The translations under genes were made by a program, and so were the position numbers. Below are positions 27,802 to 63,044 of a stretch of 64,000 nucleotides of DNA, piece by piece. Below the pieces are notes generated by a model that was not told where the DNA came from, made no database searches, and saw nothing but the letters and a program-made list of their open reading frames with translations. The DNA is from Siphonodentalium dalli (taxonomy: Eukaryota > Mollusca > Scaphopoda > Gadilida > Siphonodentaliidae): NCBI GenBank assembly GCA_032622095.1, contig CP136061.1:52215762-52279761 (forward strand), given 5' to 3'. Within the stretch, counting starts at the first letter, position 1; the number at the start of each line of letters is the position of its first letter.

Positions 27802-27911
27802 GTGACCACGTGTGTTGTGAATTCTTGATCAATCGAACTGAAATATAATAAGGTGCAGATGTTAGCGTATAATAAATACCCTGTGCGCATTTCGCAGAAA
27901 GAGGAGGAAGT

Positions 27912-27918
27912 CTATATA
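27912..27918 (+). promoter_or_regulatory. Possible TATA box of the NOF-like gene
   Basis: CTATATACC lies about 66-72 bases upstream of the ATG at 27,984 and only ~110 bases from the right end of the hAT-type MITE. Position and sequence suit a core promoter, but there is no other support. Confidence 0.35.
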
Positions 27919-27983
27919 CCTTGCAGCATGCGAGCATATATATAATAACAAGGAAAAACAGGTGTGTGCAACTTAGTGTGAAA

Positions 27984-28868
27984 ATGTCGGATATCAATAA
28001 ACTGGTCGCTTGTCTTAAAACTTTAGATGATTTGAGTCGCTTACGAGATGGTTGGCGAGATCCGTCCTCGATATGGGGTGATATTTGTAAGAAGTGCGGA
28101 CTCCCGTCCATAAAACGCAAGTGGGCATACACAACTTGGAACTGTAATCGCTATAAAGTACGAAATATCGTCATGAAATGGAGACGTTGCAACCAGCGAC
28201 AAACATGGACCGGGAAATTCGCGACGAACACACATGTCCGCACAACAGGTGATGCTGATACGTCAAAAGATGAGTCAAACACAAATACGATAACGACATG
28301 TACCGGCACCCCAGATGAGGGGGACATTGTTAGAGAAACGGACACGAGTCTCTATGAAAATAAACAGGAAAAGGACACGGCTATGTATGATGATGGGGTA
28401 GGCACCAATAAGAAATTTGCGACGAGCACACATGTCCGCACAACAGGTGATGCTAATACGTCTAAAGATGTGTTACAGATCAAGATAACGCCATGCAGTC
28501 CAATTGATGGGGACATTGCGATATCAAGTGACACGAGTGTTTCTGAAAGAAGAAAGAAAACACACATGGAAGCAAACCGGTTCAAGTTTAATATAAGTGC
28601 TACAGAGTTGAATACGATCGCCCCTTCTCATTCCAAAAAAATGTTACAGGGCGATTGGAAAAGGATTTTCTCTAATAAAATTCACGATAAAGGACAGGTG
28701 TGTCCCATAAAAGTTACCTACAACCGCGTGAAAGAGACATTTTCCCAAAAACTTCATGCTCCATATTTTCGTGGGAAAGCGGAATGTAGATTCAAAGGGT
28801 GTCAAACTTGTTTAGGATATTTAAAGAGCCAAAACGAGGGGGAAAAGCACGTGTACACGTTACTGTGA
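27984..28868 (+). CDS. NOF/MULE-type transposon ORF1 (N-terminal part, 294 aa)
   Basis: The start is the ATG at 27,984 (MSDINKLVACLKTL); the open frame upstream offers only a TTG. The N-terminal third has a compact Cys/Trp segment (GDICKKCGLP, then KRKWAYTTWNC). The middle contains an internal duplication: FATNTHVRTTGDADTSKD is repeated as FATSTHVRTTGDANTSKD about 67 residues later. The end (APYFRGKAECRFKGCQTC) matches the Cys-containing segment that precedes the catalytic domain in NOF-type MULE proteins. The true continuation is in the -1 frame (ORF at 28,790-30,697), so residues after about GCQTC are probably not used. It is likely the amino-terminal part of the transposase rather than an independent protein. 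Confidence 0.62.
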   Translation: MSDINKLVACLKTLDDLSRLRDGWRDPSSIWGDICKKCGLPSIKRKWAYTTWNCNRYKVRNIVMKWRRCNQRQTWTGKFATNTHVRTTGDADTSKDESNTNTITTCTGTPDEGDIVRETDTSLYENKQEKDTAMYDDGVGTNKKFATSTHVRTTGDANTSKDVLQIKITPCSPIDGDIAISSDTSVSERRKKTHMEANRFKFNISATELNTIAPSHSKKMLQGDWKRIFSNKIHDKGQVCPIKVTYNRVKETFSQKLHAPYFRGKAECRFKGCQTCLGYLKSQNEGEKHVYTLL

Positions 28869-38400: not shown

Positions 38401-38956
38401 GTTATATATGGAGTCTGGCAATGCATAAGAGGAAGAACACCGGCGTTCGCCCATACGAGTGTGACGTGTATAAGGAATTCAGTCATATATGGAGTTTGGC
38501 AATGCATAAGAGGACGAACACCGACGATCGACCATACGAGAGTGACGTATATCATAAGGCATTCAGTTATATATATAGAGTTTGGCAATGCATAAGAGGA
38601 CGAACACCGGCGATCGTTCATACAAGAGAGTGACGTGTTTCAGAAGGAATTCAGTTATATATGGAGTCTGGTAATGCATTAAAGGACGAACACCGGCGAT
38701 CGTCCATACCAGTGTGACCTGTATCAGAAGGAATTAAGTTATATATGGAGTCTGGCAAAGCATAAGAGGACGAACACCGGCGATCGACCACACGAGCGTG
38801 ACGTGTAATATAAGGAATTCAGTCATATATGGAGTCTGAAAATGCATAAGAGAACGAACACCGGTGATCGACCATACGAGAGTGACGTGTATGAGAAATA
38901 ATTCAGGCATATATTTTTAGGATAATATTTTATTTCATAATACATTATACATTAAT
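35401..38956. repeat. Right arm of the foldback-like inverted repeat
   Basis: From inside out: AT-rich unit (35,401-36,170), zinc-finger-derived array (about 36,168-36,612), second AT-rich unit (36,613-37,410) and a longer array (about 37,411-38,915). It ends with ATTATACATTAATAC, which matches the left arm's outer end in reverse complement. Here the finger frame reads on the plus strand, for example 36,246-36,560 and 38,421-38,633. The outermost array shows a higher-order period of about 335 bases (four finger units). Frameshifts and stops break the finger frame often. Confidence 0.85.
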
Positions 38957-45772: not shown

Positions 45773-45783
45773 ATAGCATCACT
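45773..45783. repeat. 11-bp target-site duplication of the 104-bp palindromic element, left copy
   Basis: ATAGCATCACT here is repeated exactly at 63,034-63,044, immediately outside the two ends of the short palindromic element that the large MULE later entered. Confidence 0.75.
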
Positions 45784-45792
45784 GGACTAGAT
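45784..45792. repeat. 9-bp target-site duplication of the MULE, left copy
   Basis: GGACTAGAT directly precedes the first base of the terminal inverted repeat. The exact copy follows the last base at 62,930-62,938. Nine bases is the typical Mutator-superfamily value. Confidence 0.93.
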
Positions 45793-46118
45793 GCAGAAAG
45801 TTGGATATTGAAGGAGTCGTCCGCCAACTTGACCTTTGTGATTTGACCTTTAGCATTCCGCGCAATATTTCGACCGCCATTCTTAACTCTTTAGAGCGGT
45901 AGGTTTGAAGATATTTTCTGTTGGATATTTTTGTATTTTTGAACAGAAAAATGACTAATAATCTTCATAAAACTACGACAGATAGTATCCGTATAAATTT
46001 GTCGCCAATAATGCGTAATTGTTGGGGCCTATACTCTATTATAGCCATGATAAATTATAATTATAAATGTTTATTGACCGTAATTTAACGACTTCTGAAT
46101 TTGTCAATATTGACATTG
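45793..46118 (+). repeat. Left terminal inverted repeat of the MULE
   Basis: Pairs with 62,603-62,929. It contains CCGCCATTCTTAAC (a near match, on the opposite strand, to the YY1-type AANATGGCGG motif) and three short GACCTTT direct repeats. Transposase binding sites and promoters of MULE genes usually lie in these repeats. Nothing here shows which bases are used. Confidence 0.9.
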
Positions 46119-46496
46119 AAATGATTGCTGATTAAGTCAAAGTCATGTTATTTAATTAATGCTGTTTTGCGTAAATTATATTAGGGCCGTGTCAATTAAT
46201 GTAAAAAATGCTCAATATGTAAGGTAGGCTCACCCAATTTCTTAATGATATTATTAGTAGTATATTAATTAGTCTAGTGCCCCTTCAAGTTCAAGTTCAA
46301 TTAATTTAAATTTTGAAATCTAATATTAGTATTACTATAGTCATCTGATTTTGAGGTAAACATCACCTGTTAGTATTAAATAAACAATAATAATAATAAT
46401 AATTACATGGCACTCTCCAGATATTAAAACTATAATAAAAGCTACCATATTTATATGTTTTCAACTGATATAATATACCATATGCTCTTTGTTACT

Positions 46497-46640
46497 TTAA
46501 AGGTACCGGTACCTTACTCAATCCGATTAATCATTAAGCACCCCTAAATTACTATTTATTTTCCAATCAATTATTTTTACCCCCCACCCAAAGCCAAAGA
46601 AATAGTAATTTATGAGGGTCTGATCGGATTGAGTACCTTC
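46497..46640. mobile_element. ~145-bp MITE-like palindrome inside the MULE
   Basis: The left arm CTTACTCAATCCGATTAATC and CTAAATTACTATTT pair with the right arm AAATAGTAATTTATGAGG and GATCGGATTGAGTACC. A fragment of the same family is at about 11,300-11,720. I found no clear target duplication. Confidence 0.55.
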
Positions 46641-46674
46641 AACTATTGCTCATTATTACTATTGGTGCTTCTTT

Positions 46675-46880
46675 AAAGTGATGTGAAACACTCCAGTAGG
46701 GTGAACAAATAGAAATGAGGATAATTTTGCTCAAACTTTATTTATGTGTACAAATAATAAATCCAAACTGACAACACACACCGTCATTAGTATATATTAA
46801 TTAAATTCAGTGACTCTCGATGGTGAAATAATTTTTGGCAATTTATCGCCAATTGTTGTGCCCCGAAATCTAGAACTGGA
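46675..46880 (+). repeat. Dispersed repeat inside the MULE
   Basis: The same block order as 8320-8520 in reverse complement: AGTGATGTGAAACACTCCAG, GGGTGAACAAATAGAAATGA, CACACCGTCATTAG and AATTAAATTCAGTGACTC. It shows that interspersed elements have entered the MULE or were mobilised with it. Confidence 0.65.
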
Positions 46881-47236
46881 AGTGAATATTTACAATTGAG
46901 CTTAGTTCAAGTGATGTTTTCTGTGGAGGGGTAACGTCTATTCGCTTGAGATTTTCTGTGACGTAGTAGAATGCCATATTCCTCCAGTTGGATATAAAAT
47001 ACTGTCTAAATACTGAATTAACAGTTTAACACACCCGAACAAGTGTAAGATTATTTGAGGTAAATACTAGTAGTACATATCCTTTGACAGTTCCCATGTC
47101 ATTTTACATCTGTGCACTAATTTTGTAGTAAATTTCTCACCAGTAATGATGGTATGTTGAATAATACTCTATTTATATAACACTAATTATTTTCTCTTTT
47201 TTTATTTTTCAGTCATAATCATCAAACAAATTTAAC

Positions 47237-50200
47237 ATGAATTACATCAGTGCTGGAAAGCTGACTGAGTAAACAAAAATAAATATGATTTATATATAGG
47301 GCATTAGTGGGGGGAGTTCTTGAAATATTTAATATTTATAGCCAGATCATCCTGTCCAAATTTTTAATTTAATATGTAAATAGTGGCTGGAGGCTCTGTC
47401 CAAAATTTTAAATATGTAAATAGTTGTCGCAGGCTCTTTCCAATTTTTTAAATATGTAAATAATGGCCGGAGGCTCTGTCCAAAATCTTAAATATGTAAA
47501 TAGTGGCCGGAGGTTCTGTCCAAATTTTTAAATATGTAAATAGTGGCCGGAGGCTCTGTCCAAAATTTAAATATGTAAATAGTGGCCGGAGGCTCTTCAA
47601 ATTTTTAAATATGTAAATAGTTGTTGCAGGCTCTCCAATTTTTTGAATATGTAAATACTGCCTGAAGGCTCTGTCCAAATGTTTTAATATGTAAATAGTG
47701 GCCGGAGGCTCTGTCCAAATTTTTAAATATGTAAATAGTGGCCAGAGGCTCTGTCCAAAATCTAAATATGTAAATAGTGGCCAGAGGCTCTTTAAATTTT
47801 TTAATATGTAAATAGTTGTTGCAGGCTCTTTCCAATTTTTTAAATATGTAAATACTGCCTGGAGGCTCTGTCCAAATGTTTAACTATGTAAATAGTGGCC
47901 AGAGGCTGTCCAAATTTATATATATATAAAATAATGCCTGCAGACTGTCCACTCCATCCCCATAATTTGAAATGTTCATTTGTCCATCAAATGTCCATTA
48001 TATTCAAATATATTTGTACAATCCATTTGTGTTATAATTAACTGGATGTTTCCTAATTAATCTTTGGACAAATATGTTTTTTGGAAACAAATTGCATCAC
48101 ATGTTTTTTGTTCTACTTTAAACGACCCACCCGCTCTGGCACCCCTTCGACCTGTATGGAATTTTTTTTGTGGAACCCTCCACCCCGTGTTCATGTTATT
48201 AACATCTTTTTTTTTAGCAACCTTCTATTTATTCTTTGTTCAGCAAAATATGGGATATCATATAGAATGTCACAATGTTGATTATGTCAATAATAATGTA
48301 TTACTCTTATAATATTTGTTGTGATACCGATGACAGATACTCATGTAGTTTCGCAACACCTAACTGTTCTACTTTCACCATTGGTTTTGGATATTAACAA
48401 TAAAGTCTTGCTTTAGTGTTTCTACTAGATGAAACACGCTCCCTTTGGTATAGGGTAAATCCCTAGTAAGATGAAAATTAATTAATTAAATTTAACTAGG
48501 AAGTTAGTAACATTATGCTGGATGTGCTTACTTGTAAACAATCTGATCTAAAGTGACAATAATTAACCACCAATCATATCTTTGCTGAATATTTGGAATA
48601 CATGCTGATTGAAACTTCATTCCTGCTTATTGAAGATTATATGGTTATTTGTTCATTTCAGCTGCCAAGGCCCCCACCATATGGCAATTTTGTGGGACGG
48701 TACGGCGAATGGAAAGTCTATGAGATAGGCAGATTAACAGAGGTAGGCACTTCAAAGTTATACTAGTCTAAAATAACAATATGTTTTTATCACTTTTTAA
48801 GTGCAACGATCTATATTTATATATATAACTAGCAGGTTGGCCCGCCACTGGCGTGGTTGGTCAGAAACATGACATTTTTTGTTTTTGAATGAGTTAATTG
48901 TGCCTTTTTAATCAAGAGAAATTACGGTACCCTTCCCTAAAAGAGGTATGATTTAAGGTACATCGGGCGGAAAAAACTGACCCGATGAAAATTTCCCCCG
49001 TTCCTAGGAATGACAGACATAAGAATCACACAACACGCATTTTTGGTTTCCAATGAGTTAATTATGTGTTTTTAATCTAGAGGAATTATGATACCCGTCC
49101 CTAAAAGAAGTATGCCAACAATGTCGTTGTTGGCATTCACAGCTTGGGGGCCACCCGAAGATTCTCACATTGCCGTAAAGAGAAAATAGCATTGTGTGTA
49201 TTTAGTAATTATCCCTCGCCAAATTGAATATTTGCGGGGGATATAGTAATGGGTTCCGATCATTCGTCTGTCTGTCCGTCCTGAATTTTAAAAGTCATAC
49301 CTTGAACAAATGTCTACGGATTTCAAAGAATATAAGTTCACCTGACCATTACCTAGAATGAGTTTGCAAGCCAGGTCCAGTCGGATATTTTTACCGGAGT
49401 TATTGGACTTTGTTTATTATTTTTGTCGAATTTACCAAATTCACCAATGCACTTCCCCAACTGCACATTTCGGCGGGGGATACCGCCGTCTGCGACTGCT
49501 TGTTATATTTAATAACTGGATGGGAGAATATGTTTAGCATAGAAAGGGTAGACTATTCAAATGGATACTGTTATAACTGAATAGGTTTACTGTTATTTTA
49601 CTGATCGTTGAATCTGTTCTTTTCAGAGTGAGGCACCAATACCAGCATCACTACCGGCGACCACTTCAGCTGCTCAACTCACTAATGTATCACATTCTCC
49701 AGTTGCTATGAGACAAGTGATGGCTGCCCAACCATCAATCCCATCTGCAAGTGAAGGTAGAATCTTAGACAAGCGTCGAATCCAAGAGCTGGTCAAAGAG
49801 GTTGATCCATTGGAACAACTGGATGATGATGTGGAAGAGGTATGCCTGATATATTAATATTGTATTATGTTTATGGCTTGCTGTAATAATGTCAGAAATA
49901 CATGTAGCAATACTGGCAGTATTCTTTTAAACATTTCATTTACACTAAATACTCGTTGAAGAGTACAGGCAGTTCCCTTGGAAATATTCTGACTGTCCAA
50001 TTCATGCTCAATACATACAATTTATGGTATATGTCAGAAAACAGGTTTCCTAAAATATTGGCCTGGAACCCTGACTACATCTTTAACCCTCTGTTTACTA
50101 AATCCTCATTGACGAATACTGCAGTTCAAAAATCAATATTTGATAACTCTGAGCTTTGATGGTGGGTTCCTCGACTCGAATCAGATACTTTTTACCCCTG

Positions 50201-53200
50201 AAGCCAGATGTTCACTACTATGAGGACATTCTGATTAGTATTCAATCATCTCGTTCGGGTTTTCTGCTCTAGAGTTTTTAATCTTTCTTCTCAAAAGTAG
50301 TGACTTATGCTGTGTATTCTTAATTTTTAGAATGTTGCATATGATGGAGCCAATCGCAATCTTGGGCCTTCCATACCAGTTTTAGGTGAGTTGAATACTA
50401 TATCTCTTAGTTCATACCCTTATTAAATTTATCAGACATAAATCACAATAAAGGTAGCTATAGTATCAGCAAAGGTGACAGTTTTGGATTGAACTTAACT
50501 GACAATGGTGTGGAATAAATACAGAACACAATATTCAATCAAATGAATCGGCATAACTTCAGTTATAGTAAAGCTGTAAAAAATCGACTCCTTGACAACA
50601 GCAGATAACAGCCCTCATAATTGGCTACAGCAATCAGCAATGCCGAAGCCATTTGCTGAAGCAAACTGGGCCATGGTAAAGGGTTGCCGAAGCCAAACAA
50701 TCTGAATTAAAAGGGCTGGCAGAATTATGGGTAACTTTTCGATGAGAGCTTTCTGGTGAATGGCAACAAACCATATTTCCGACTAAATCCTGAAAAGTTA
50801 CCCATAATTCTGCTGTGGTTATGGAGTCGATTACAGAAGGGCTTTGCTGTATGGGCGGCCTATCACAAAAATATTTCCGGCAACATGCATCGATAATACC
50901 AGTGTAATCCTTTATAATGGACATCTAATGAATGATTGTACATTTAGGGTTCAACAAATAATTTCACTGGATGGGAAAAATGATAACTATAGTCACAGAA
51001 GCTGATGTTGACTAATACTTTTGTTGACAATTCAGATTGCAGACATACATTTTGGCCCATACCTGCAAAGTGAGGATGAGTTTCAAGGATCACTTGTACA
51101 CGCAAAGAAAAATAAAATAGCAGCAATAATGAGTGAAGTAAGTGAACGGGAATTTGTGAAAAGTTAAATATTGGTTTATGCATAAACATTTCTATTTCAT
51201 TGCACAAAAGAAATGGTCAGTGGTATGATCTTTCGCAGTTTGTCACAACCGTTAATTGGAAATCTATAAATATATATTTTGGGACTTTTGTCTGTCTGTT
51301 AGCTATGGCCGGGAAACTGCCAGATGGATTTGGATGAAATTTGACACCTAGGGCTAATTTTTTCCAGGTAGTATTTTGGATGGGTCAGATCATTACCCCG
51401 ACCTGACCTTGACCTTAAAAATTGTCAATTCAAGGTCAAATCGCCAATTTTGACGAACTTTGATACCTAGGGTTACTTTTGTCTGAGGAGTGTTTTGGAC
51501 TGGTCAAATCGTTACCCCGACCTGACCTTGACTAATATATATTTTGGGACTTCTGTCTGTTTGTCTGTTAGCTATGGCTGGGAAAACTGCCTGACGGATT
51601 TTGATGAAATTTGATACCTAGGGTTACTTTGGTCCACGGAGTGTTTTGGATGGGTCAAAGCAGAGGGAAAACACCCCGAATGAAGTCGGGTCCACCAGCT
51701 AGTCAAATATGTAATCGACATGTACAAATCAACTATTTTTATATTGATTTACGCTCCCGTTATAACTTTTGGGTGCCAAAACCAAAATGGTGTTTTTAGA
51801 CCAACAGCAGGAACTTATCTCAATTGCTGTTTTTATACACATTCATATGAAATCCCTCCCTCAACAGTCCTCAATATAATAAAATATCTTAATAAAATTG
51901 ATTGTCTTGTAGGGATTAAAGATAATGGGTAGAACCCATATACACTTCACTGAATTTGGGAAGACAGGTGAGCCTACATGCAGACATAATTATACTATCA
52001 GGATATGTCACACCACCCCATTTCTGTTACTCACTATTACGTACACTAGATGATGTCTTACGAGATATTTTCCGATTGTATATTTCTGATGTATTTTATT
52101 TTCTGACTCAAATAAAAGCGAATGGGAATCTAGTATTTCTTTTATTATTTAGAATTTTTAGATATGTAACAAGACAGACTCAGAATCATTTAGAATTTTA
52201 TTGTAGGTGAAGATACATGTTACCTTTAAAGGCACAGATGACCTTCACAATGGATATGCTATTAAAATTGGTCAAATCCATTAAACCCACCATAACAAGA
52301 AAGAATATTACAATATTGACAGATCATGTCCTTAATATACCAATCATCAATATTGAGTAAATAGCATGTTTTTGTCAAGTTTTACACTTTATTATGTAAA
52401 CATCCATGCCTTTAAATATAAGAATGTTTATATCATAGCAACGCGATAATATCATTTTTTTTATATCACTCTTTTATTTCTATTCAAGGATATAAAATGG
52501 GTACAGACTGTCTGGTCACGGTTGATTTTAAAAAATGCAATTCATGTGAGTGGATATTAAAGACATATTATGTTTTCATAACCAAATTTAAAGACATGAG
52601 TGGAAGGACAAAAATGTAACATTCTCAGATGAACAAAGAGGGATAACTCTAGAATGAAAAATGCAAATAACACAGCTGAACCATCATTTGAAAGCGTTCT
52701 TGATGCCAGACCTCCATATCAAGTTTCACAGAATCAAATAACCCATGACTGAGATATATGGGTAGAAAGATGGAAATCTAACATTTTCAGATAAACAAAT
52801 GTTTTTTTGGAAGGGGGGGGGATATAAAAATGAGCTTGTTAAGCCTTGTTTTAGTTTATGAATAGAACCTGGTGTGAAACGTTCTACTTGTTGAGGTTAC
52901 GAGCATTTTGCCTCTTCACAATACAAACCGTTCTTGCCATCAGTGGCAGCTAGCTCGCAGGCAAGTATGACTTGCCAAACAGTAGTATTTCAACCAGGCT
53001 CTGCTCATATTTCAATCCATGAACTGAATTTCTTATGGTATGCTCCAGCCAATTAAATTTTGTGTTCAAAAGGACCATATAGAGACCAGCCAAGAAGTTT
53101 AAAATTGGGAGAAGTTACTTCCCTCTATTTGATTATTGTAATTGAAAAATCAAGTAATACATGTAGCTAGGCTTAATTTGTTTGGCTCAGGAACAGATTG

Positions 53201-53428
53201 AACCGATAATTTATATGCATCATATTGACAATTCAGCAAATTGTCATACACTGAAATTGTAACTTATCACATTAATATTTTCTTATTGCAGTCGGTATCA
53301 AATTTCAAAGAAGAAACGGATGTGTGATTGTATCACGGGGTGATGAATCAGGAAAAATACCACCAGTGTGCCTATCATCAGTGGTCGAGCTCCCACGGCG
53401 GAGACATTTATTCTTTAAAAGAAATTAA
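47237..53428 (+). CDS. MULE cargo gene: TAF12 histone-fold fragment fused to KptA/TRPT1-like domain (238 aa, eight exons)
   Basis: Exons: 47,237-47,268 (ATG), 48,670-48,742, 49,627-49,839, 50,331-50,385, 51,043-51,137, 51,913-51,967, 52,489-52,545 and 53,292-53,428. All introns are GT-AG and every phase joins, giving a closed 239-codon frame. The first junction is the least certain: an alternative acceptor at 48,661 opens 27 codons without an ATG. Exon 3 carries RILDKRRIQELVKEVDP and EQLDDDVEE, the diagnostic start of the TAF12 histone fold; the rest of that fold is absent. Exons 5-8 give SLVHAKKNKIAAIMSEGL, then KIMGRTHIHF, then GTDCLVTVDF, then FGIKFQRRNGCVIVSRG and GKIPPVC. This follows the NAD-binding lobe of KptA/Tpt1 RNA 2'-phosphotransferases (H-G-T, R-x-H-I-H-F, G-R-x-x-C, D-G-I-x-F and N-G-V motifs). 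H-G-T is H-A-K here, the arginine of the G-x-R motif is not evident, and the N-terminal R-H lobe is missing. Catalysis is therefore doubtful. It is most simply a captured and fused pair of host genes. Confidence 0.8.
47380..47945. repeat. ~42-bp minisatellite in the first cargo-gene intron (about 13 copies)
   Basis: The unit is AAATATGTAAATAGTGGCC followed by GGAGGCTCTGTCCAAATTTT, with TTGTTGCAGGCTCTTTCC variants. Open frames on the minus strand (47,448-47,835) simply follow the repeat. Each unit contains GGCTCTNTCC and a pyrimidine run. Confidence 0.9.
49627..49839 (+). other. TAF12: Captured TAF12 exon within the MULE
   Basis: This 71-codon exon is bounded by TTTTCAG and GAG|GTATGC. Its last 27 residues match the beginning of the TAF12 histone fold (alpha-1 and first loop), and the first 44 residues are the low-complexity Ala/Pro/Ser/Gln-rich type that precedes the fold in metazoan TAF12. 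In TFIID and SAGA, TAF12 pairs with TAF4 or ADA1 through the complete fold. Here the exon that should follow (beginning M-L-x-Q-I-A-D-D) is replaced by NVAYDGANRN, so the fold is truncated. Confidence 0.85.
51260..51710 (+). repeat. ~260-bp direct duplication in intron 5
   Basis: TATATTTTGGGACTTTTGTC, GTTAGCTATGGCCGGGAAA, CTGCCAGATGGATTTGGATG and TTTGACACCTAGGG occur at about 51,272-51,365 and again at about 51,535-51,625, with ACCCCGACCTGACCTTGAC between. A relative of the 3' part is at about 49,230-49,330. It looks like an old interspersed repeat. Confidence 0.6.
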
Positions 53429-55958
53429 ATTGTAATTTTATTATCTGTGTAATTTATTTTCAACTAAATTGATGAATATATTAAATTATTTTCATTTGAT
53501 CAAGAACGTGTTCAAGAATTTTGACATCCAGCTATAATCAGCTATTTCTTCATGGTTCAATAACTAATATACTATACAATGTATTCTTCATATTAAATCA
53601 GCAAGTCTTCCCCTTTCATTGGAAGATCGCTCTCATTTATATGAGAGAGGGCCCTAGCACTCAGATGGTACCGCGGGCAACATGCGCTTGATACCATATG
53701 AGCTTAAGTGGTATTCTTGCTTGAGAGTACAAATGTACCTTATTATCTCAATATTTCTATGGAATCAACAAGTGATGTTCAAAAACGTTAATCACAGGAA
53801 ATTGATTTTTATTTAAGTTTGCACATTTTCTGTACCCAAATCTGAAAAAAAATAAAATAATAAACAACTCTAAAATGTGAACATCACCAACATTTAACTG
53901 AAAGGCCTTGTGGTGGTAAATGCCCATTGTAAATTTCATTGCGATCTGACAACCCATAACTATTATTCAGGACTATTATTCAGGTGGTCAAACAAAGACC
54001 AATGCACTATATTGTCCAGATAGACAGTTCAAAGTTCAAAAGCTTTATTTATAAAGTCAGGCATTTTAAATTACAAACATGAGCATTAAGCTCTTAACTG
54101 ACTTGTAAAACAATGAATATGTACATAAACAGTAACGTGAATAAAACACAACCTATCTGAAAAATAAATTACATGTATATTAGCTAAAACTTTGTAAAAG
54201 ACGAGTAAAATCCCTGAGGACAGGTAGCCCTGACTGGATCAAAAGCGTAAGACACAAATTTGTATATTCATATACGGCACAGTAATGTGCACAATGAGTC
54301 CATATTTCATTCCTGGATAACACGTTTTGTTCCATTCAGAGATACCCGACCAGAGAGTGCGGATTAAAATACAAAACATATGCATATAATTAGGATATCC
54401 TACAGGCACAGACGGATAAAGTCAATCCAGTTTAATCCCCAATTTTATTTGAATAGTGGAGGTAATGGTATATATACAATAATGAAGAATACCGCTTGTG
54501 ACTAGTTGTTCTATGTATTCTGGCCATTTGTTGTTGGTATGATCTAAAATTGAACTCTGATTTCCATGCCATTATTAATCTTTCAATTGTGTTGGCCTAT
54601 CTTCCATAGCACAATGAATATTAAATAAGACAATATCGTTTTGACAAATGCCCATTCTACATAGTTTCAGGATGCTTTCATTTAATGACTCTAAAGTAAA
54701 TTCACTCTTTCATTTCTGACAGACTGTTAAGACAGTATGTCCTGTAATTAAAATGGACATCAGTTTCCATCTCATTAATTTCCTTTTAACAAATGGCTCA
54801 GAACAAATTATTAGTATAAATTTGTTAGGGTATTAGTAACAGTGTTAGTAGTGTGTTTCAGATGTTAGAGCTGCCCATAGGGTACTCACTTCCCCTTGAG
54901 CCTCACAGTCTTGTGAGTCAAGCCCTATGTTAATATATCGGGCTCACCAAATGGCACTCATCCAGACTCATGGATGCAGCCCATGTTAATAGCGTTAGTG
55001 GCATATGTTCTAAACCGGGTGGTAAGATTTGTGTTGTAGTGTGTTTAATGGAGTAGTCAGTTGTGCAATTTGTTAGCTTTAAAGGCACACATAATATTTT
55101 TCTAGAGCTCATGAACAGTTTGAGCATTTTAATTTGTGTTAGCTCGTCAGCTTGACCTAATTAAGTTAAGCCATATTGTAAATGTCATATGGATAGTGTA
55201 AAGGTAGTCATAGTATCAATGAAGGTGACAGTAATGGATTAAATTTATCTGACACAACAATGTAGAATAAATACAGAACACAAATTACATCATAATCTTA
55301 AAACTTTTATCGAAATAGCTGTGCACGGCGCATAGTTAGATTTATATATCCTTGCGCTATCCACTACTCATTCAATAAAAGAGTCTCGATTGAGATGCAC
55401 GTTGTCTTCTGTCTATATCTTCAACAAATGTCTCAATATTATGTATGACTTTAATTAAATGAATCACTTACCTACATAATCACTCCCTACATCACACAAA
55501 TGGAAATTGTTTCAAGCAGGAACATTGAGTAAGGAATCAAGAGGTACCGACAATAATAGCTATGATAGTTACTTTATTCCCATTGATTCATTTGTAGGAA
55601 TATCATTTAGATAAAATGATTATGTCCAAACAATGTTCCCATTAGCATCAATTCCCATTTGTAGGAAGTAGCGAGTGATAACACTGAGAATAAGGGATGA
55701 GTGGGGTTAGTAATATTCCTTCTGCATTCCACCTAGTCACACATGGTAATGCACATGATACATACCTAATGATATCATAAACGAGTCTAGTCTGTTGTTA
55801 CTCACCTGTAGCAGCAGTGTTGTGATTACCCCACCCCTTTTACGCGTGATTTATTATTAAGCTCCTCTAGAAGTAGAGCAAGCAGTTTCCTAGATGTTCT
55901 TTTTTAAGCGTGTTTTATGATTATAATTAAGCTCCCCTAGACATCGAGTAGTCATATC
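53429..55958. other. Non-coding between the convergent cargo and transposase genes
   Basis: No exon is supported. A segment at about 54,030-54,110 (AGTTCAAAGTTCAAAAGCTT then TATTTATAAAGTCAGG) resembles the 3' end of a retroposed repeat. A short stretch near 55,200-55,290 repeats part of 50,455-50,530 (GGTAGTCATAGTATCA then AAGGTGACAGT). Confidence 0.5.
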
Positions 55959-58900
55959 TTAGGCTAGCTCATCAGCACAACCTATACATTTCCAATCTTT
56001 TTCTTTGGGTTCTTTTGTGATTGCTACACACTTCCAATGAAACCATTTTTTGCATGTTCCACACTCAACAGATTGAAGGTCATCTTTCCTAGGTTTCCAT
56101 CTGCAGGCCCTCTTACATACAGGGCAGGTCCATTTCAACAGATCTGATGGCTTTGTTTCATTTTTCTCTGTTTTATTATGTTTCCATGTAGCTAAATTTT
56201 GCAACCCTGCATGGCCCTTCTTATCTTTGAGTACTTCCAGTGCTTCTTCCGATGTTGCAAGTTTGAGATCTGCTAAATCTTGACTGGCTGTGACTGAGTT
56301 ACTGCTACCTGCAGAACCATTATTGTTAGTTCTTGTCATCCTTCCTTCATCTTGATTGTCATCGGTGTTGGAAACTGATCTTGACACAGATACCAGTTTT
56401 GCTTGCTCCTTGTGTGCAATAACTTTTCTGGAATGGTACTTATTGATATGTCTGTTCATTAATGCCATGTTAAGGAAATGTGCATCCTTTATCCCATCAC
56501 ACAAGCAGACAGTACAGTACAACAGGTTAATTCTGTATTTAATTGAATAATGCTTGTATAACTGATTCTCAGTACTGCAGGCATATGGAGGCATTTCACC
56601 ATTTTCAACACATATACCACATGTATATGGTTTTGCAACAAGAGTGTTGTTAAATACACAGTGATCTTTCTTTTTCTTATTTTTTGCTGGTTCAGAATTA
56701 TCTATCTCGGTTTCTGACTGCCCCTCATGATCATCAACAGCTCTTATTGGCAACAAACAGGTATTTATCTTCTCATTCAATTTCAAGGAATTTTCCACCA
56801 CAGAAGAGAAACTGATGCCACGTTTTGAAACTCTCTGCCGCTTCCTACCTCCATGTCTCTCACTAGCTTTATCCGGAAAATCCACATTGGGCCTATATGG
56901 ATCAAGAGGACCTTCCTCTGTGTCATCTTGAATCACTAGGGCATACCTCTCTTGTACTGAGCCCTCTTGTCTTCTGAAACCCATGTTGTGTGGGTGTCTT
57001 TTTGCCAATGTTCCTCTTGGTAGCTTCATTCCACGATGACTCTCATCATGCAACACTTTCAATATTCTGCCTCTGGAAGCATTTTCCAATTCCTCGAAGT
57101 CCGCAACATGAGATATCCTCTTCAAGTTTTGTATAATAACATCTGTACTATCAAGTCCAGCAGGCACATTCACTTCGCCAATAGTTTTGTTTTGTTTTTG
57201 CCTATTAAATCTGAAGGTCTTGAAAGCTTCCAGTAAGGTGTGCTCATTTTGTATACATTCTCTTTGAGCTAGACATGCATACATGTGCTTGCAAAAATAA
57301 GGCTGTCCCATAACTATGAAATAATTACATGTACATATTCCCAGGTTGATATTGACAATATGAACTTCTCCCTTAATTTTTTCAACAAATTCATCTGGGA
57401 GTATTGCACAAATGTATTCATAGAATATCCTAGAAGCGGCTATGTCTAAATTTGAAATTGCCCTTTTGCATTTGGTAACAATGTCATAGGTATGCTCATC
57501 ATTCCCATTGGTAATCTGGCTATGATTTCTCTCTTCCAATTCTTCGTCTGGTTCAAGTGTACCATCAAAAAATTCATCTGGCAAATCTTTCTTACTGTGT
57601 GAATCTGACTCACTTCTGACCAATGCCCAACCATCAGTTTTGCTCCATTCTACTATGAGGCCTCTTTGCATGAGGCTTATACCACGCTTACATACTTTGA
57701 GCTCTTTCACTTTGCCTCGGATATTTCTCTTTCTCACTTGTTTTCTCACTTGTGATAGCTGCATATTTTGCTGAGTGGCTACTATATCATCATCAATTAT
57801 GCTATTCATTAAAGTCAGTGTAAATGTGCATATCAGCCGATTAAGATGGCCTCCAAAATATGTCTCATCAACATCTTTGAATTTCCTTTCTGTCACATTA
57901 TCAGTCAAAAGTAGTGGATTGGTCTGCTCCGTTTCTTCAACAGCATACATACACTCAGCAGACATAGGTTCATGCCATGGGAAAGAGAACCAATGTTTAT
58001 TTAAATATGCAACCAGTTTACTCCTGTTTTCCTCGGACAGAAGCCAATCTGGTATCTCTTTTTCTATGAAGTCAATCAGCCTCTTTGTCACATACTGCCT
58101 GGAGTTTTGATCCCAACACCTCATTACACATTTAAGTCCTGTCTCCAGTGGTCGTGTTAAAAGCCGCAACTCCTCTTCTTCATTCAAATGCCTGCGAAAA
58201 GCCTGTACGGCATGGAAGTTGCACAGTATTGATTTCAAGTTATTACTCATAACTCCATTCAATAATGCCCTGTCTTTGTCATGTTGAAAAAATGGCTGAA
58301 TTTGGTTTTTGAATGAACATGGTTTCAATCGGAAAAAGCCGTTGCCATCATTGAAGATGTACAACTCTGTAGGGTGAAGGCATTTCTCGTCAGTGCATGG
58401 TACGTTTGCTAACATTAGCTGAATTGTTCTGGCATGGATATGCTGCTCATCTGAATTGGATACAGATGCGACTACAAGATGGCCAGCATTCATACTATCA
58501 CAATAGGTAATGAAGGCAGTTTTAAAACGAACTGCATTGAAGTCATGTTTCACATCAAGACCAAGAACTGCTTTGCCAAAAGTTCTCAAATAATTCAGAG
58601 ACTCATTCTTTGCTACAACATACTGATAGTCTCTTCCTATGACCATCGAACCTCGCTGGAAAAGCAACACAGAGTCAAAGTTGCTTTGAATTAGGTTCTC
58701 TGTTCTCCGCCAGTCAGACATTATATCATTTTCTTTCATACTGATTTTGATAAAACCTTTGTCTACATATTTCACCCGGTTGCGTACTTGGTCCAGATAA
58801 TGTATTTTACCATCTGCGTCTGGTTTTATAAGAAGCAGCTTTTCTTGATTATTACCTGCAGAGATTATTTGTTTTGCTGTTGCTTTGAAAGATAGTCGCT

Positions 58901-60140
58901 GTTTGTCCCACGAGTCTCTTGTTGTGAGACTAGCTCGCTTGTTTCCCTGGTTTGCTTCTACACTGTGATAAGAGCCATTTTTCACACCTTTATAAATGGT
59001 CCATTTTGAGATATCATTACTATATATAACCAATTTCAGTTTCCAACCACAGGCTAAGTGTTTTCCATGAACTGCCCGAGTGATATTTGAAGTTTGGTTC
59101 ATCAATGTCATTGGACGGTCACAGTGATATTTCCACATGTGCAAGTAACAAGCATTGCACAGTATCCTCCCCACACTGTCTTTCCTAAAGTTGTGATCAT
59201 AATCCACCATGCAATGTTCACATTGGCTTTGTACTTCTTCTAATTTAACTTGGCATGATGGACATTCTTTTGTTGCTATAGTAACGTTCAGACTTCTTCT
59301 TAGTGCAAAGCACTCTGTTCTGCATGTATCTGACTTAGAACCACATGCAACATGCAAGCATACTACTGGAGTAATTGCATCATCAGTATATGTACCTTCT
59401 TCAAAGCTATATGTTTCATCAAAGCGGTGTGTTTTCCCCCACTTTTCATTATCTGTAACAGCTACTTTCATGGCACCACAATGCTCATTGTGATCGATTT
59501 GTATGCCCTTGTCTACTAAATAGTGTTTGTTGACATCAAACAAAAATTTGTCAAAATAGTACTTTGTTTGTAATCCAACTTCTAACTTACCATATTCAAT
59601 CCATAATTTGTTGGTCACTTCATATCTCACCCAATCTGCAGCATCTTCTTCCAAGAATTGTCTGATCTCCTCATTAGCTACAGTGTCATTTTTTCCTTCA
59701 TCTGAGCACTTGAAGTTCTTGCTCATTCTCTTACCATCTTTGAGTCTCACCTCAACCTGCATAAAATTATGTTTTTTGGACTTCCTGTATGATATCAATG
59801 GCTTTCCAAATGTCAGATCTTCCAGACTACTGTTCTCATTTGAAAGGGCCTCCTGGTACTCCTTCTCCATATTTGCAGATTTCAAATTTTCCACTAGCTC
59901 CTGACATTCATCTGTTGACAAATATTGATTGATTTTTGTGATAGCCTCATCATCCTTCAATCCAAGCTCAGTACATGCAAACTGTTTGCTCAAAGCTGAT
60001 TCACAGAATCTAATGTGCAGATATAATGTTAGTCTCTTATTCCTAAATCTTACTTCAGGTTTTCCAGACAAAACTGTGCTTAATTTATCAGGTACTATTA
60101 CACCATTATTCCTCTTATCAGATTTTCCTGTACTTGTCGA
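55959..60140 (-). CDS. MULE transposase with GATA-like, SWIM, C2H2 and PHD fingers
   Basis: The frame is open from a TAG at 60,143 and has no ATG for about 90 codons; it overlaps the end of the protease gene in the -1 frame by 43 bases. Numbering from a TTG at 60,071 (1370 residues): a GATA-type finger C284-x2-C287-x17-C305-x2-C308 ending LCNACYLHMWKYHCDRP; the DDE core D506 (VLGLDVKHD), D575 (YIFNDGNGF), C617-x-x-H620 (ILCNFHAVQAF) and probable E728 (TDNVTERKF); SWIM finger C913/C915/C927/H929 (ICTCNYF, YFCKHMYAC); a C2H2 finger C1186-C1189-H1208-H1213; and a C-terminal PHD finger C1316/C1319/C1337/C1340/H1345/C1348/C1362/C1365. The enzyme should bind the terminal inverted repeats and cut and rejoin DNA in the nucleus. 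The PHD finger suggests recognition of histone H3 tails and so possible chromatin targeting. All catalytic residues are present and the frame is uninterrupted, so it may be functional. Confidence 0.9.
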   Translation of the reverse strand, partial: STSTGKSDKRNNGVIVPDKLSTVLSGKPEVRFRNKRLTLYLHIRFCESALSKQFACTELGLKDDEAITKINQYLSTDECQELVENLKSANMEKEYQEALSNENSSLEDLTFGKPLISYRKSKKHNFMQVEVRLKDGKRMSKNFKCSDEGKNDTVANEEIRQFLEEDAADWVRYEVTNKLWIEYGKLEVGLQTKYYFDKFLFDVNKHYLVDKGIQIDHNEHCGAMKVAVTDNEKWGKTHRFDETYSFEEGTYTDDAITPVVCLHVACGSKSDTCRTECFALRRSLNVTIATKECPSCQVKLEEVQSQCEHCMVDYDHNFRKDSVGRILCNACYLHMWKYHCDRPMTLMNQTSNITRAVHGKHLACGWKLKLVIYSNDISKWTIYKGVKNGSYHSVEANQGNKRASLTTRDSWDKQRLSFKATAKQIISAGNNQEKLLLIKPDADGKIHYLDQVRNRVKYVDKGFIKISMKENDIMSDWRRTENLIQSNFDSVLLFQRGSMVIGRDYQYVVAKNESLNYLRTFGKAVLGLDVKHDFNAVRFKTAFITYCDSMNAGHLVVASVSNSDEQHIHARTIQLMLANVPCTDEKCLHPTELYIFNDGNGFFRLKPCSFKNQIQPFFQHDKDRALLNGVMSNNLKSILCNFHAVQAFRRHLNEEEELRLLTRPLETGLKCVMRCWDQNSRQYVTKRLIDFIEKEIPDWLLSEENRSKLVAYLNKHWFSFPWHEPMSAECMYAVEETEQTNPLLLTDNVTERKFKDVDETYFGGHLNRLICTFTLTLMNSIIDDDIVATQQNMQLSQVRKQVRKRNIRGKVKELKVCKRGISLMQRGLIVEWSKTDGWALVRSESDSHSKKDLPDEFFDGTLEPDEELEERNHSQITNGNDEHTYDIVTKCKRAISNLDIAASRIFYEYICAILPDEFVEKIKGEVHIVNINLGICTCNYFIVMGQPYFCKHMYACLAQRECIQNEHTLLEAFKTFRFNRQKQNKTIGEVNVPAGLDSTDVIIQNLKRISHVADFEELENASRGRILKVLHDESHRGMKLPRGTLAKRHPHNMGFRRQEGSVQERYALVIQDDTEEGPLDPYRPNVDFPDKASERHGGRKRQRVSKRGISFSSVVENSLKLNEKINTCLLPIRAVDDHEGQSETEIDNSEPAKNKKKKDHCVFNNTLVAKPYTCGICVENGEMPPYACSTENQLYKHYSIKYRINLLYCTVCLCDGIKDAHFLNMALMNRHINKYHSRKVIAHKEQAKLVSVSRSVSNTDDNQDEGRMTRTNNNGSAGSSNSVTASQDLADLKLATSEEALEVLKDKKGHAGLQNLATWKHNKTEKNETKPSDLLKWTCPVCKRACRWKPRKDDLQSVECGTCKKWFHWKCVAITKEPKEKDWKCIGCADELA

Positions 60141-61465
60141 CTATGTATCTTGGCCTGCTGTGGTATTTCATTCACATCTGACACTGAGTCACTGAAATCT
60201 GGTGAATCATTTGTCTCCTGTCCTTCTACATATGATTGGACCTGACTATTTGTTTGATACACATGCTCCAGATTCACAACACCATCCATGAGCCAATTCA
60301 GTGTAACAAATCTCATAAAATGTGAGAATCCACTGCATGATCTGAGGTATGTCAGATGTTGATTATCAGCTATGTCGTGACTACAAAGTGCATAAAACTT
60401 TGGTATGTCTAAAGCTGCAACACTTGCTGTTACTACAAGAACTGGTCCACAAACATTAGAGCATTCCTGTTTTGGATAATGAGGTGAGCAATTTGAAGAA
60501 CAGTAATGTCCTATTTCACTTGTTTGCTCAGGGTCATGGCAGTATATCAATTCTGGCGATGGAATTCCCCATTTGGCAAGAATTCCTGCTATGTTTGTCA
60601 ATACGTCTTGCGGACAGGGCCATCCTTTGGTGTCTGCATAAATCACAGTATTATTACTACATGAGTATACTGCCATTGAGTAATGGTTGCCATGCTTCAC
60701 AGTAATTTCTCCATGTTCATCAAACTGTGCTATATTTAGAAAAGTCTGGTCCTTATGCAATCCTACATGCAACATGAATACCAAAGTCTGGCAATCAATA
60801 AATGGATTGTTTCCAAATCTTCTCTCCAATTCAGATATATATCTGTCACAGCTGAACCCCACCATCATAGATTCAACATATGCACTTTTAGCTTGACTGT
60901 TTAAAATTTCTGAAATTCCATTGAATATTGCATTGTCAAACCATTCATCACCTAATAAGGTCAATGCATCATGTACTTTTATCCTGCATTTGGGAAATTC
61001 TACTGCAGCTTTCATTGTATTTGATATCATAGTTGAGCCAAAATTTCGAATTTTTCCATAGTCCATTGAACGATAACAGTTTGGTGCAGCAAACTCTATT
61101 TTAAGCCATGACATGTACTTTGAGCACTTACTTTTCATAATTTTTACTTTATGCAGCTGAAGAAATGCATCTATCTGTTTGAAATCATACACACCATAAT
61201 CTAGTGCTGCCAATGTATTCTCATTTTTCTGGAGAACAGACATGATATTATCTAACTGATCAATACTTGGCATGAATGGTGATTCTGCTGCTAGATCACA
61301 ATCTGTGTCATGACTGTCAATTATTTTCCAATTCTCTGAGTCTAATGTTTCAGGTATGAATAAATGCTTATACATACATATAGCCAGTGTTTCTTCCAAT
61401 CTCAACAAATCCAGTTGCTTCCCATCGGATCCATCCACTAACTTCACCAATGTAGAAGACGCCAT
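60098..61465 (-). CDS. Ulp1-like (C48 family) cysteine protease of the MULE (455 aa)
   Basis: The start ATG at 61,465 follows a good acceptor-like sequence (CTTTATTTCTCAG) about 20 bases upstream, so a 5' untranslated exon is likely. The N-terminal 160 residues are unrecognised. The catalytic domain runs from about residue 165 (LLGDEWFDNAI, the substrate-groove W-L-x-D-x-x-I type motif) and carries H261 (GNHYSMAVY), D278 (VIYADTKGW), Q333 and C339 in the Q-x5-C-G spacing of Ulp1/SENP enzymes. All four key residues are intact. Such proteases cleave SUMO or related modifiers and accompany several MULE groups, where their role in transposition is not settled. The stop TAA at 60,098 overlaps the transposase frame, so the two proteins may be made as a fusion by -1 frameshifting, by splicing, or by re-initiation. 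Confidence 0.82.
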   Translation of the reverse strand: MASSTLVKLVDGSDGKQLDLLRLEETLAICMYKHLFIPETLDSENWKIIDSHDTDCDLAAESPFMPSIDQLDNIMSVLQKNENTLAALDYGVYDFKQIDAFLQLHKVKIMKSKCSKYMSWLKIEFAAPNCYRSMDYGKIRNFGSTMISNTMKAAVEFPKCRIKVHDALTLLGDEWFDNAIFNGISEILNSQAKSAYVESMMVGFSCDRYISELERRFGNNPFIDCQTLVFMLHVGLHKDQTFLNIAQFDEHGEITVKHGNHYSMAVYSCSNNTVIYADTKGWPCPQDVLTNIAGILAKWGIPSPELIYCHDPEQTSEIGHYCSSNCSPHYPKQECSNVCGPVLVVTASVAALDIPKFYALCSHDIADNQHLTYLRSCSGFSHFMRFVTLNWLMDGVVNLEHVYQTNSQVQSYVEGQETNDSPDFSDSVSDVNEIPQQAKIHSRQVQENLIRGIMV

Positions 61466-62602
61466 AATTAATTCTGGGTATCTGAGAAATAAAGATCAAT
61501 GAAGAATAATTAATAATGATATATAAAATACAACTCGTAGTAGTACTACTACTACTAGTCAAAATGAATGTGGAAATGGCCTTAAATTAAAATGATCATT
61601 TAATCATGATTTATGACAGTCTCCACCCATTTATTTAATTTTTAAATGTACTACTAGTCGTATACTAATAGTAATACTATTAACTACAGTAAAAGGGGCC
61701 CCCACCCCACCCCCCATGGAATACCACTTAATACAGAGGGTGGAATACGGAATACCAGTTAACAGCCATATGGAATACATAAAAATATATGAAAACTTCA
61801 TTTTTTGGAAGGTCGGCGTACGAATACCGGTATATTTGGAATACCGAATACCTCCTAACAGAGGGGCCGGAATACGGCGTACCTCATAACAGGGCATGGA
61901 ATACGGTGTACGAAAGGGGGGGGGGTCACGGGGGTGGGGGCCTCGTAAAACTTCAAAGCTTTGTTTTGGTCTACTTCAACTTACTTCAAGTTCAAGTGCA
62001 ATAAAAAAAATTCATGTTAAATAAATATAGTTTTCACTATATTAAGACTATAGTATAAAACAGTTTAACTAATTAAATAATTTAAAATAGGCTTTCAAAC
62101 CACAAGTGACAATGACATGCAATATCATATGTGGCATTAATTTAATTAGTTTAATGTACATTTGAATAATGTACATGTATCCCCAGTCTATTCACCAATG
62201 TTCTAGTAACTTCTAGACTAAAGCCTACTAAAGTAAAGGCTGCAAATATAAATTAATAATATAATGGATGAATCATATTAAATGGACAGTCTTGAGAATG
62301 GAGTCTACGAGTTACTCAGTTAGTATTAAATTAATAGTAATACTAATACTACTACTAGTAATAGTTATTATAGTAATTAGTAGTAGTACGACTACATTTA
62401 CAGTTAAAAGAATTTAGAAATAGAAATATTGAATGATCATAATGAAGATTGAAGTAACACTCTTCTTATATCAGAGTTAGACAGAGTCAAACATGAGTAA
62501 ATCATTCAATATTTACACAAAAAACAGCATTAATAACATGACATTGAATGATTGAGTCAATGTAATGTACAGCATTAATAACATGACATTGAATGATTGA
62601 GT
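61466..62602. other. 5' region of the MULE protease-transposase genes
   Basis: Non-coding, AT-rich. It contains a GGAATACC-type repeat (about 61,715-61,910) with a poly-G run, and two 48-bp direct repeats at about 62,552-62,612 (CAGCATTAATAACATGACAT, then TGAATGATTGAGTCAATG). The promoter of the minus-strand genes presumably lies here or in the right inverted repeat. Confidence 0.55.
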
Positions 62603-62929
62603 CAATGTCAATAATGATAAATTCAGAAGTCGTCGATAAACATTTATAATTATCATTTATCATGGCTATAATAGCGTATAGGCTCCAATAATTACGCAGA
62701 ATTGGCGACAAGTTAATACGGATACTATCTGTCGTAGTTTTATGAAGATTATTAGTCAATTTTCTGTTCAAAAATACAAAAATATCCAACAGAAAATATC
62801 TTCAAACCTACCGCTCCCAGGAGTTAAGAATGGCGGTCAAAATATTGCGCGCAATGCTAAAGGTCAAATCGCAAAGGTCGGCACAAAGGTCAAGTTGGCG
62901 GACGACTCCTTCAATATCCAACTTTCTGC
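62603..62929 (-). repeat. Right terminal inverted repeat of the MULE
   Basis: The reverse complement starts GCAGAAAGTTGGATATTG and follows the left repeat to GACATTG. Compared with the left copy it has an extra CCGACCTTTGYG-like dodecamer and several substitutions, and lacks about 10 bases of TAATTTAACG. Confidence 0.9.
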
Positions 62930-63033
62930 GGACTAGATACTGGCTCTATGACGCTCCGACGCTCTGCTCTGTTCGCCGTCATGACGGCGTGCATAGTGTA
63001 ACGACGTAGCCTCATAGAGCCAGCGTCTAGTCC
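62930..63033. mobile_element. 104-bp palindromic mini-element, target of the MULE insertion
   Basis: The left arm GGACTAGAT..TGGCTCTATGA pairs with the right arm TCATAGAGCCAGCGTCTAGTCC (reverse complement starts GGACTAGACGCTGGCTC). The centre is GC-rich with GCCGTCATGACGGC. If the MULE and one copy of its 9-bp duplication are removed, the element is flanked on both sides by ATAGCATCACT. A tiny MITE with an 11-bp duplication, possibly itself MULE-mobilised, is the simplest reading. Confidence 0.72.
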
Positions 63034-63044
63034 ATAGCATCACT

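What the first reader, a model, noticed from the sequence alone, without database searches (positions are those of the whole stretch)
45793..62929. A complete 17.1-kb autonomous MULE with 326-bp TIRs and a perfect 9-bp target duplication
Both ends are visible: GCAGAAAGTTGG termini, alignable inverted repeats, and GGACTAGAT directly outside each. The transposase and protease frames are uninterrupted with all key residues. Large, apparently intact MULEs with defined boundaries are uncommon in animal genomes.
Basis: seen in the sequence. Interest (0 to 1): 0.85.

Follow-up and report, generated by a model that had tools for sequence, protein, structure and literature searches.

The report
Disabled copy of giant animal transposon
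The 17-kb stretch is a real jumping DNA element with exact borders, but this copy is damaged; better-preserved relatives in the same genome carry extra genes, including one for a likely RNA-processing enzyme, which is unusual for an animal transposon.

Summary
In detail: 45793-62929 has inverted ends (326/328 bp, 299 of 315 aligned bases identical), GCAGAAAGTTGG termini and a perfect GGACTAGAT duplication. In the host genome the TIR has at least 41 matches; of 11 TIR pairs, 6 have a perfect 9-bp duplication and 2 have 8/9. "Complete autonomous" does not hold: two other copies encode one 1,846-aa protein (Ulp1-fold protease + DDE transposase + SWIM + PHD), whereas this copy lacks 34 bp present in 7 of 7 others examined, so its halves are in different frames. 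Anatomy (PHD, minisatellite before the 3' TIR, 9-bp duplication) is that of Rehavkus, an outgroup of MULEs; the sequence link was untestable. New: the family's other strand carries a spliced KptA/Tpt1 RNA 2'-phosphotransferase gene (copy C: PF01885 E=7e-19; exons a, b, d in 7 of 7 other copies examined), an SGNH hydrolase gene (intact only in copy C) and, at 4 loci held, a TAF12 exon. The window copy lacks the SGNH exon and KptA N-lobe. Its KptA exons are 67-77% identical to other copies', its transposase region about 98% to copies B and C: a mosaic.

The parts
45793..46118 (+). left TIR (3' side of the transposase gene)
62602..62929 (-). right TIR (5' side of the transposase gene)
45784..45792 (+). 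target-site duplication GGACTAGAT, left
62930..62938 (+). target-site duplication GGACTAGAT, right; also the first 9 bp of the MITE-like palindrome
60101..61495 (-). Ulp1-fold cysteine protease half (465 aa; H271, D288, Q343, C349)
60098..60143 (-). overlap of the two frames; 34 bp present here in 7 of 7 other copies examined are missing (deletion point about 60142/60143)
55962..60140 (-). transposase half (1,393 aa): repeated basic motif, GATA-like Zn motif, DDE (D529, D621, E751), SWIM motif, C2H2-like motif, PHD
   Evidence: several motifs read by eye
55977..56126 (-). PHD finger (residues 1339-1388)
   Evidence: PF00628 E=8e-5, 23 bits (cut-off 24)
47352..47930 (.). 40-bp minisatellite, 14.6 units, on the 3' TIR side
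48662..48742 (+). exon 1 of the plus-strand gene (LPRPPPYGNFVGRYGEWKVYEIGRLTE), phases 0-0; shared with copies B, C, E, F
49627..49839 (+). TAF12 exon, phases 0-0, splice-site consensus intact
   Evidence: E 1.1e-7; PF03847 1.4e-5, 26 bits, cut-off 27
50331..50385 (+). short exon (NVAYDGANRNLGPSIPVL), phase 0-1; in copy C it leads in phase into the SGNH exon
51036..51137 (+). KptA/Tpt1 C-lobe exon a
51913..51967 (+). KptA/Tpt1 exon b (GRTHIHF)
52489..52545 (+). KptA/Tpt1 exon c
53292..53428 (+). KptA/Tpt1 exon d with stop
62930..63033 (.). MITE-like palindrome that was the target; with one GGACTAGAT it is flanked by ATAGCATCACT at 45773-45783 and 63034-63044

Best explanation
The stretch is one damaged, internally deleted member of a recently active family of giant (about 17-27 kb) cut-and-paste DNA transposons of the Mutator superfamily, with Rehavkus-like anatomy. 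The family moves by a single 1,846-aa protein: an Ulp1-fold cysteine protease fused to zinc-binding and DNA-binding modules, a DDE catalytic core, SWIM and PHD. It recognises the long TIRs and inserts with a 9-bp staggered cut. The other half of the element carries accessory genes on the opposite strand: a spliced KptA/Tpt1-type RNA 2'-phosphotransferase, an SGNH hydrolase and, at some loci, a TAF12 exon that could be spliced in frame into the SGNH gene. Shown here: TIRs, target duplications, multiple independent insertions, the intact single ORF in two copies, the 34-bp loss in this copy, exons with splice-site consensus shared between copies, the protease fold (predicted model). Inferred: catalysis by DDE, cleavage by the protease (self-processing or deSUMOylation), transcription and splicing of the accessory genes, exchange of segments between element lineages, and that this copy could now move only with protein supplied by an intact copy.
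For: TIRs and target duplications; at least 41 genome matches. 6 of 11 pairs 9/9 and 2 of 11 8/9. Copies B (C2:148.71M) and C (C1:261.35M) carry the 1,846-aa ORF, 99.8% identical in protein, at sites with different target duplications: recent movement. 6 of 9 relatives found by the core (Tubulanus, two of Patella, three unnamed) are one protein of 1,823-2,270 aa, 29-43% identical. Protease model matches Ulp1/SENP. KptA: PF01885 E 6.6e-9 (window C-lobe), 1.6e-12 (copy B C-lobe, same translation in copy C), 7.1e-19 (copy C with N-lobe); exons a, b, d in 7 of 7 other copies fetched whole. SGNH: Lipase_GDSL_2 1.5e-5. TAF12.
Against: No Pfam MULE or SWIM match for the window protein at E<=1; only weak ones in relatives (ZSWIM1-3_RNaseH-like 0.042 in P0023, SWIM 0.14 in P0025). 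The model of the catalytic core is poor (pLDDT 52.8), so an RNase H fold was not shown. Of 11 TIR pairs, one has 6/9, one 4/9 and one a missing terminus. GDSL, PHD (window) and TAF12 scores lie under the Pfam cut-offs. Of the copies held, SGNH is intact only in copy C; KptA exons have stops in D and E and frame breaks in A and F. No transcript was seen.
Confidence: 0.85

Rival explanations
1. This copy is a complete, autonomous MULE, its protease and transposase being made as two proteins or joined by splicing or programmed frameshifting.
For: Both frames are open and carry the key residues; the overlap is only 43 bp.
Against: Copies B and C and the 6 relatives that have both halves use one frame; 7 of 7 other copies examined have the 34 bp that this one lacks; no splice pair with good sites joins the frames; the SGNH exon and KptA N-lobe are missing.
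Confidence: 0.08
2. KptA, SGNH and TAF12 pieces are all recent host-gene captures (Pack-type cargo), not genes of the element.
For: MULEs capture host sequence; TAF12 is a host gene and its exon was found at only 4 of the loci held (window, B, C, C4:152.88M). KptA domains are abundant elsewhere in this genome. SGNH is intact only in copy C.
Against: KptA exons a, b and d lie in the same order and strand in 7 of 7 other copies; window against A, D, E, F, G gives dN/dS 0.10-0.17 with dS 1.8-2.1; the one KptA ORF sampled elsewhere is only 26% identical.
Confidence: 0.25
3. It is a canonical MuDR-type MULE rather than a Rehavkus-like element.
For: 9-bp duplication, long TIR, DDE with CxxH, SWIM motif.
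Against: PHD finger and minisatellite before the 3' TIR, the two features PMC6446971 gives as setting Rehavkus apart, are both present; no Pfam MULE match.
Confidence: 0.25
4. The inverted repeats are the ends of a segmental duplication and not a transposon.
For: Some TIR matches lie in duplicated flanks (L013/L023; L009/L010; L032/L033).
Against: Six unrelated flanks with perfect and different 9-bp duplications; the target is a small palindrome with its own 11-bp repeats on the two outer sides.
Confidence: 0.01

Closest known systems
Rehavkus DNA transposons (Repbase, e.g. Rehavkus-1_TC of Tribolium, 9.5 kb)
   Same: 9-bp duplication, TIR length in the 26-400 bp range, PHD finger, minisatellite before the 3' TIR, one transposase ORF in intact copies
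   Different: Fused Ulp1-fold protease, 17-27 kb length and KptA, SGNH and TAF12 sequence are not mentioned in the passages read; host looks lophotrochozoan, judged by the TAF12 exon alone, not arthropod or annelid; sequence not compared
Plant MULEs with Ulp1 genes (KI-MULE / Kaonashi; recalled, KI-MULE also in a passage)
   Same: Mutator-type element and an Ulp1-like protease together
   Different: Here the protease is the N-terminal part of the transposase protein itself, in an animal
Pack-MULE / Pack-TIR elements (PMC8277862, passages)
   Same: Host exon (TAF12) between TIRs with splice-site consensus kept
   Different: The carrier encodes its own transposase; that paper reports no Pack-MULE in 100 animal reference genomes
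KptA/Tpt1/TRPT1 RNA 2'-phosphotransferases
   Same: PF01885 over its cut-off; GRTHIHL motif and, in copies with the N-lobe, IRAxxGH
   Different: Carried by a transposon in several small exons; the N-terminal RH motif was not found
Decapod proteins P0001-P0003 (Palaemon, Halocaridina, one unnamed)
   Same: Same protease-like and GATA-like DNA-binding parts, 32-33% identical over 29% of the transposase half
   Different: No DDE core, catalytic Cys replaced by Ser: probably domesticated

Membership tests
Mutator superfamily (MULE) | 9-bp target-site duplication (8-11 bp) | tested here: met
   6 of 11 pairs 9/9, 2 of 11 8/9
Mutator superfamily (MULE) | long terminal inverted repeats | tested here: met
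   326/328 bp
Mutator superfamily (MULE) | DDE core with CxxH between second D and E, and SWIM (pattern recalled) | tested here: met
   both D and CxxH aligned in 9 of 10 rows (P0028 does not reach that far), E and SWIM in 10 of 10; read by eye
Mutator superfamily (MULE) | match to a Pfam MULE transposase model or RNase H fold | tested here: inconclusive
   none at E<=1 for the window; ZSWIM1-3_RNaseH-like 0.042 in P0023; model pLDDT 52.8, not searched
Rehavkus | PHD finger in the transposase | tested here: met
   PF00628 8e-5, 23 bits against cut-off 24; 24.1 bits in relative P0022
Rehavkus | minisatellite before the 3' TIR | tested here: met
   47352-47930, 14.6 x 40 bp, on the 3' side of the minus-strand gene
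Rehavkus | one transposase ORF | tested here: met
   copies B and C, 1,846 aa; not met in the window copy, which has a deletion
Rehavkus | sequence relationship to known Rehavkus transposases | not testable with these tools
   Repbase is not held
Ulp1/SENP (C48) protease | His-Asp-Gln-Cys with Ulp1 spacing (recalled) and fold | tested here: met
Autonomous element (this copy) | uninterrupted gene for the mobilising protein | tested here: not met
   34-bp deletion shifts the frame between the halves
Pack-MULE | host-gene exon captured between TIRs | tested here: inconclusive
   TAF12 exon identified, but the source locus was not found: the genome search for it did not complete
KptA/Tpt1 (PF01885) | family score above the curated cut-off | tested here: met
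   36.5 bits window C-lobe, 69 bits copy C with N-lobe, cut-off 26
KptA/Tpt1 (PF01885) | N-terminal RH motif (recalled as catalytic) | tested here: inconclusive
   profile positions 1-27 not found

The most novel reading that the evidence does not exclude
An animal lineage carries cargo-bearing giant Mutator/Rehavkus transposons that keep, as working genes under purifying selection, an RNA 2'-phosphotransferase (KptA) and an SGNH hydrolase, swap these modules between element lineages, and add host exons (TAF12) in frame by splicing. KptA may remove 2'-phosphates from, or ADP-ribosylate, ends of element RNA or DNA and so help the element escape host defence.
Probability: 0.42. Interest if true: 0.85.

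Novelty: new variant of a known kind. Interest (0 to 1): 0.66.

Why it matters
Animal MULEs are described as rare and short (1.4-10 kb in arthropods), and no animal Pack-MULE was found in 100 reference genomes. Here is a recently moving family of about 17-27 kb with intact copies, a protease fused to the transposase, accessory enzyme genes of which KptA shows signs of selection, and a host exon in frame. It gives a direct system for asking how DNA transposons acquire and keep host-like enzymes, and what a KptA enzyme does for a transposon. The decapod relatives that lost both catalytic centres suggest that the same protein was domesticated as a DNA-binding factor.

Tried and rejected
Intron joining the two frames: no donor-acceptor pair with good sites. 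PDB search with the protease frame gave only antibody chains, by chance. A PDB search with three exon peptides was negative, and two-exon KptA searches were negative in NCBIfam and weak in PDB and Pfam; adding exon c and copy B's exons gave clear scores. RNase H fold of the core: model too poor to search. TAF12 second half: not in the window. No tRNA or Rfam hit. Host TAF12 gene and MITE copy number: the genome search did not complete. The C7 113-kb TIR pair (8/9): its ends are element ends, the middle was not obtainable; not used as evidence for a 113-kb element. Lengths of 22-27 kb may include nested insertions; not resolved. dN/dS (NG86; copy C not used in pairs): among A, B, D, E, F, G 12 of 15 pairs lie at 0.05-0.28; against selection are F-G 1.71 (very few changes), A-F 0.70 and A-G 0.69 (these two compare different exon sets: A's frame-broken exon d and F's and G's exon c were left out); window-B dS saturated, no value; transposase: window ORF2 against B 0.49, B-C whole ORF 1.01 (few changes).
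Full report
Observation. The element runs 45793-62929, its inverted ends of 326 and 328 bp agree at 299 of 315 aligned positions, and GGACTAGAT stands directly outside each end and nowhere else in the window. The target can be read too: counting one GGACTAGAT, the right flank begins with a 104-bp palindrome (arms 77% complementary), and ATAGCATCACT lies both at 45773-45783 and at 63034-63044. So the element sits at the very end of a small MITE-like palindrome that seems to have its own 11-bp duplication, which is internal evidence for the pre-insertion site. Whether this palindrome has other copies in the genome was asked and not answered.

Other copies. The assembly holding the window has 2.23 Gb in 9 contigs; the left TIR has 41 listed matches, a lower bound. 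I inspected 34 of the 41 and formed 11 pairs including the window by nearness and orientation. Six pairs have a perfect 9-bp duplication: GGACTAGAT (window), GTTCAGTGT (A, C4:218.61M, 18.5 kb), AGCGAAGTT (B, C2:148.71M, 17.7 kb), ATGAAACTT (C, C1:261.35M, 25.2 kb), TTCCTGGTG (D, C4:180.60M, 22.3 kb), GGTAGCGGG (E, C4:64.96M, 19.9 kb). Two have 8 of 9 (F, C3:98.46M, 26.8 kb; C7:159.48-159.60M, 113 kb), one 6 of 9 and one 4 of 9 (the two C4:81 Mb pairs), and one has lost its right terminus (G, C3:204.1M, 14.7 kb). Some single ends lie in duplicated flanks.

The mobilising protein. Two minus-strand frames, 465 aa and 1,393 aa, overlap by 43 bp in different frames. A search with the core found 9 relatives. 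Six have both halves in one protein: Tubulanus (1,995 aa), Patella (1,863 and 1,868 aa) and three from unnamed sources (1,823, 2,270, 2,251 aa); three are shorter and lack the protease half. In this genome copies B and C have one 1,846-aa ORF and are 99.8% identical to each other in protein. Aligned over the junction, 7 of 7 other copies have 34 bp that the window copy lacks, and no convincing intron joins the frames. The window copy is therefore frame-broken; copies A, D, E, F and G are broken in other ways. B and C are 99.6% identical over 11.6 kb and 99.2% over 5.4 kb at different sites, so movement was recent.

Cargo. On the plus strand, exons with splice-site consensus were recognised. 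A 213-bp exon at 49627-49839 is the N-terminal half of TAF12 (PDB 1.1e-7; PF03847 1.4e-5, one bit under cut-off). In one search, 18 of 18 proteins listed carry the TAF12 domain, and the 11 with a species name are molluscs, nemerteans or an annelid (best Patella, 64%). The rest of TAF12 is not in the window. Among loci held the exon occurs at 4: window and C4:152.88M (identical) and, with an in-frame 25-codon loss, copies B and C; the whole genome was not searched for it. Four exons at 51036-53428 spell the C-terminal lobe of KptA/Tpt1 (PF01885 6.6e-9 for the window, 1.6e-12 for copy B); their phases agree (a-b 0, b-c 1, c-d 1). In the seven fetched copies exons a, b and d lie in the same order in 7 of 7, exon c in 5 of 7 (a 7-residue stub in F, none in G); there are stops in D and E and frame breaks in A and F. 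The N-lobe exon is in 4 of 7: open in C and D, with a stop in E and a break in F; copy C's N- and C-lobe together give PF01885 7.1e-19. Upstream, copy C has a complete SGNH hydrolase exon (GSSH, GSND and DGVHL motifs; Lipase_GDSL_2 1.5e-5, under cut-off) that follows in phase from the short exon, so exon 1, the TAF12 exon, the short exon and SGNH could form one protein. E has it with stops, F and the C7 end (L054) with frame breaks, G only short inverted fragments; A, B and D gave none. The window lacks the SGNH exon and the KptA N-lobe.

Selection and mosaic structure. Window KptA exons against those of A, D, E, F, G: dN/dS 0.10-0.17, with dS 1.8-2.1, near saturation, over 71-109 codons. Among A, B, D, E, F, G, 12 of 15 pairs lie at 0.05-0.28; the three exceptions are told under Tried and rejected. 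In DNA the window's KptA exons are 67-77% identical to the others', while its transposase half differs from copy B by dS 0.022 and the region 55838-61694 is 97.7-97.8% identical to B and C. So neighbouring parts of one element have very different ages. The window's KptA type recurs at C4:152.88M (99%), C7 (95-97%), C4:44.04M (92-93%) and C3:98.44M (88%) (found by that same region, so not an independent count). The simplest reading is exchange of segments between two old element lineages, for instance during gap repair; this is inference.

Literature. Seven searches of the open PMC library showed no description of KptA or SGNH genes in MULEs or Rehavkus in what I saw: listings (8 of 8 papers for Rehavkus; 12 of 16,027 for the KptA terms) and passages of six papers. 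Most subscription papers are not held, so this is weak evidence. PMC13359780 (passages) gives arthropod MULE lengths of 1.4-10 kb. PMC8277862 (passages) reports no Pack-MULE in 100 animal genomes. PMC6431247 (passages) lists GDSL esterases as accessory genes of rotifer Terminons.

Verdict. Real, well bounded and part of a recently multiplied family; not complete and not autonomous as it stands; most likely a Rehavkus-like giant element whose family carries unusual accessory genes.

Noticed in passing
P0001-P0003, not in the window: Decapod proteins of about 1,020 aa (Palaemon, Halocaridina, one unnamed) have the protease-like and GATA-like parts but lack the DDE core; the catalytic Cys is Ser in 3 of 3. 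Probably a domesticated transposase.
   Followed up: partly
whole genome G000; L067 (C1:15850600-15852600): KptA domains (130 matches at E<=1) include 7 places with the same top score inside open frames of 866-1,492 aa; the sampled one continues into a C2H2-like motif and is 26% identical to the element's KptA. It looks like a second, multi-copy family with a KptA domain, perhaps mobile.
   Followed up: partly
window 62930-63033 with 45773-45783 and 63034-63044: The transposon inserted exactly at the end of a MITE-like palindrome; whether the family prefers such ends was not tested.
   Followed up: partly
window 27876-31291: Three plus-strand frames (330, 635, 197 aa) with a transposase-like look and no Pfam family over its cut-off; possibly another degraded transposon.
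   Followed up: no
window 16594-21172 and 36169-38914: 84-bp tandem repeats; the minus strand of 16619-17653 encodes C2H2-like zinc-finger repeats (PF13465 5.5e-26).
   Followed up: no
C7:159484953-159598091: Two element ends 113 kb apart with an 8/9 duplication; window-type KptA sequence occurs at two places between them. Nested insertion, duplication or a giant element: unresolved.
   Followed up: partly
flanks of L004, L018, L009/L010: Several insertion flanks contain AAxATGGC-like sequence, which recalls promoter-proximal motifs; possible preference for gene 5' ends. Seen by eye, no control.
   Followed up: no
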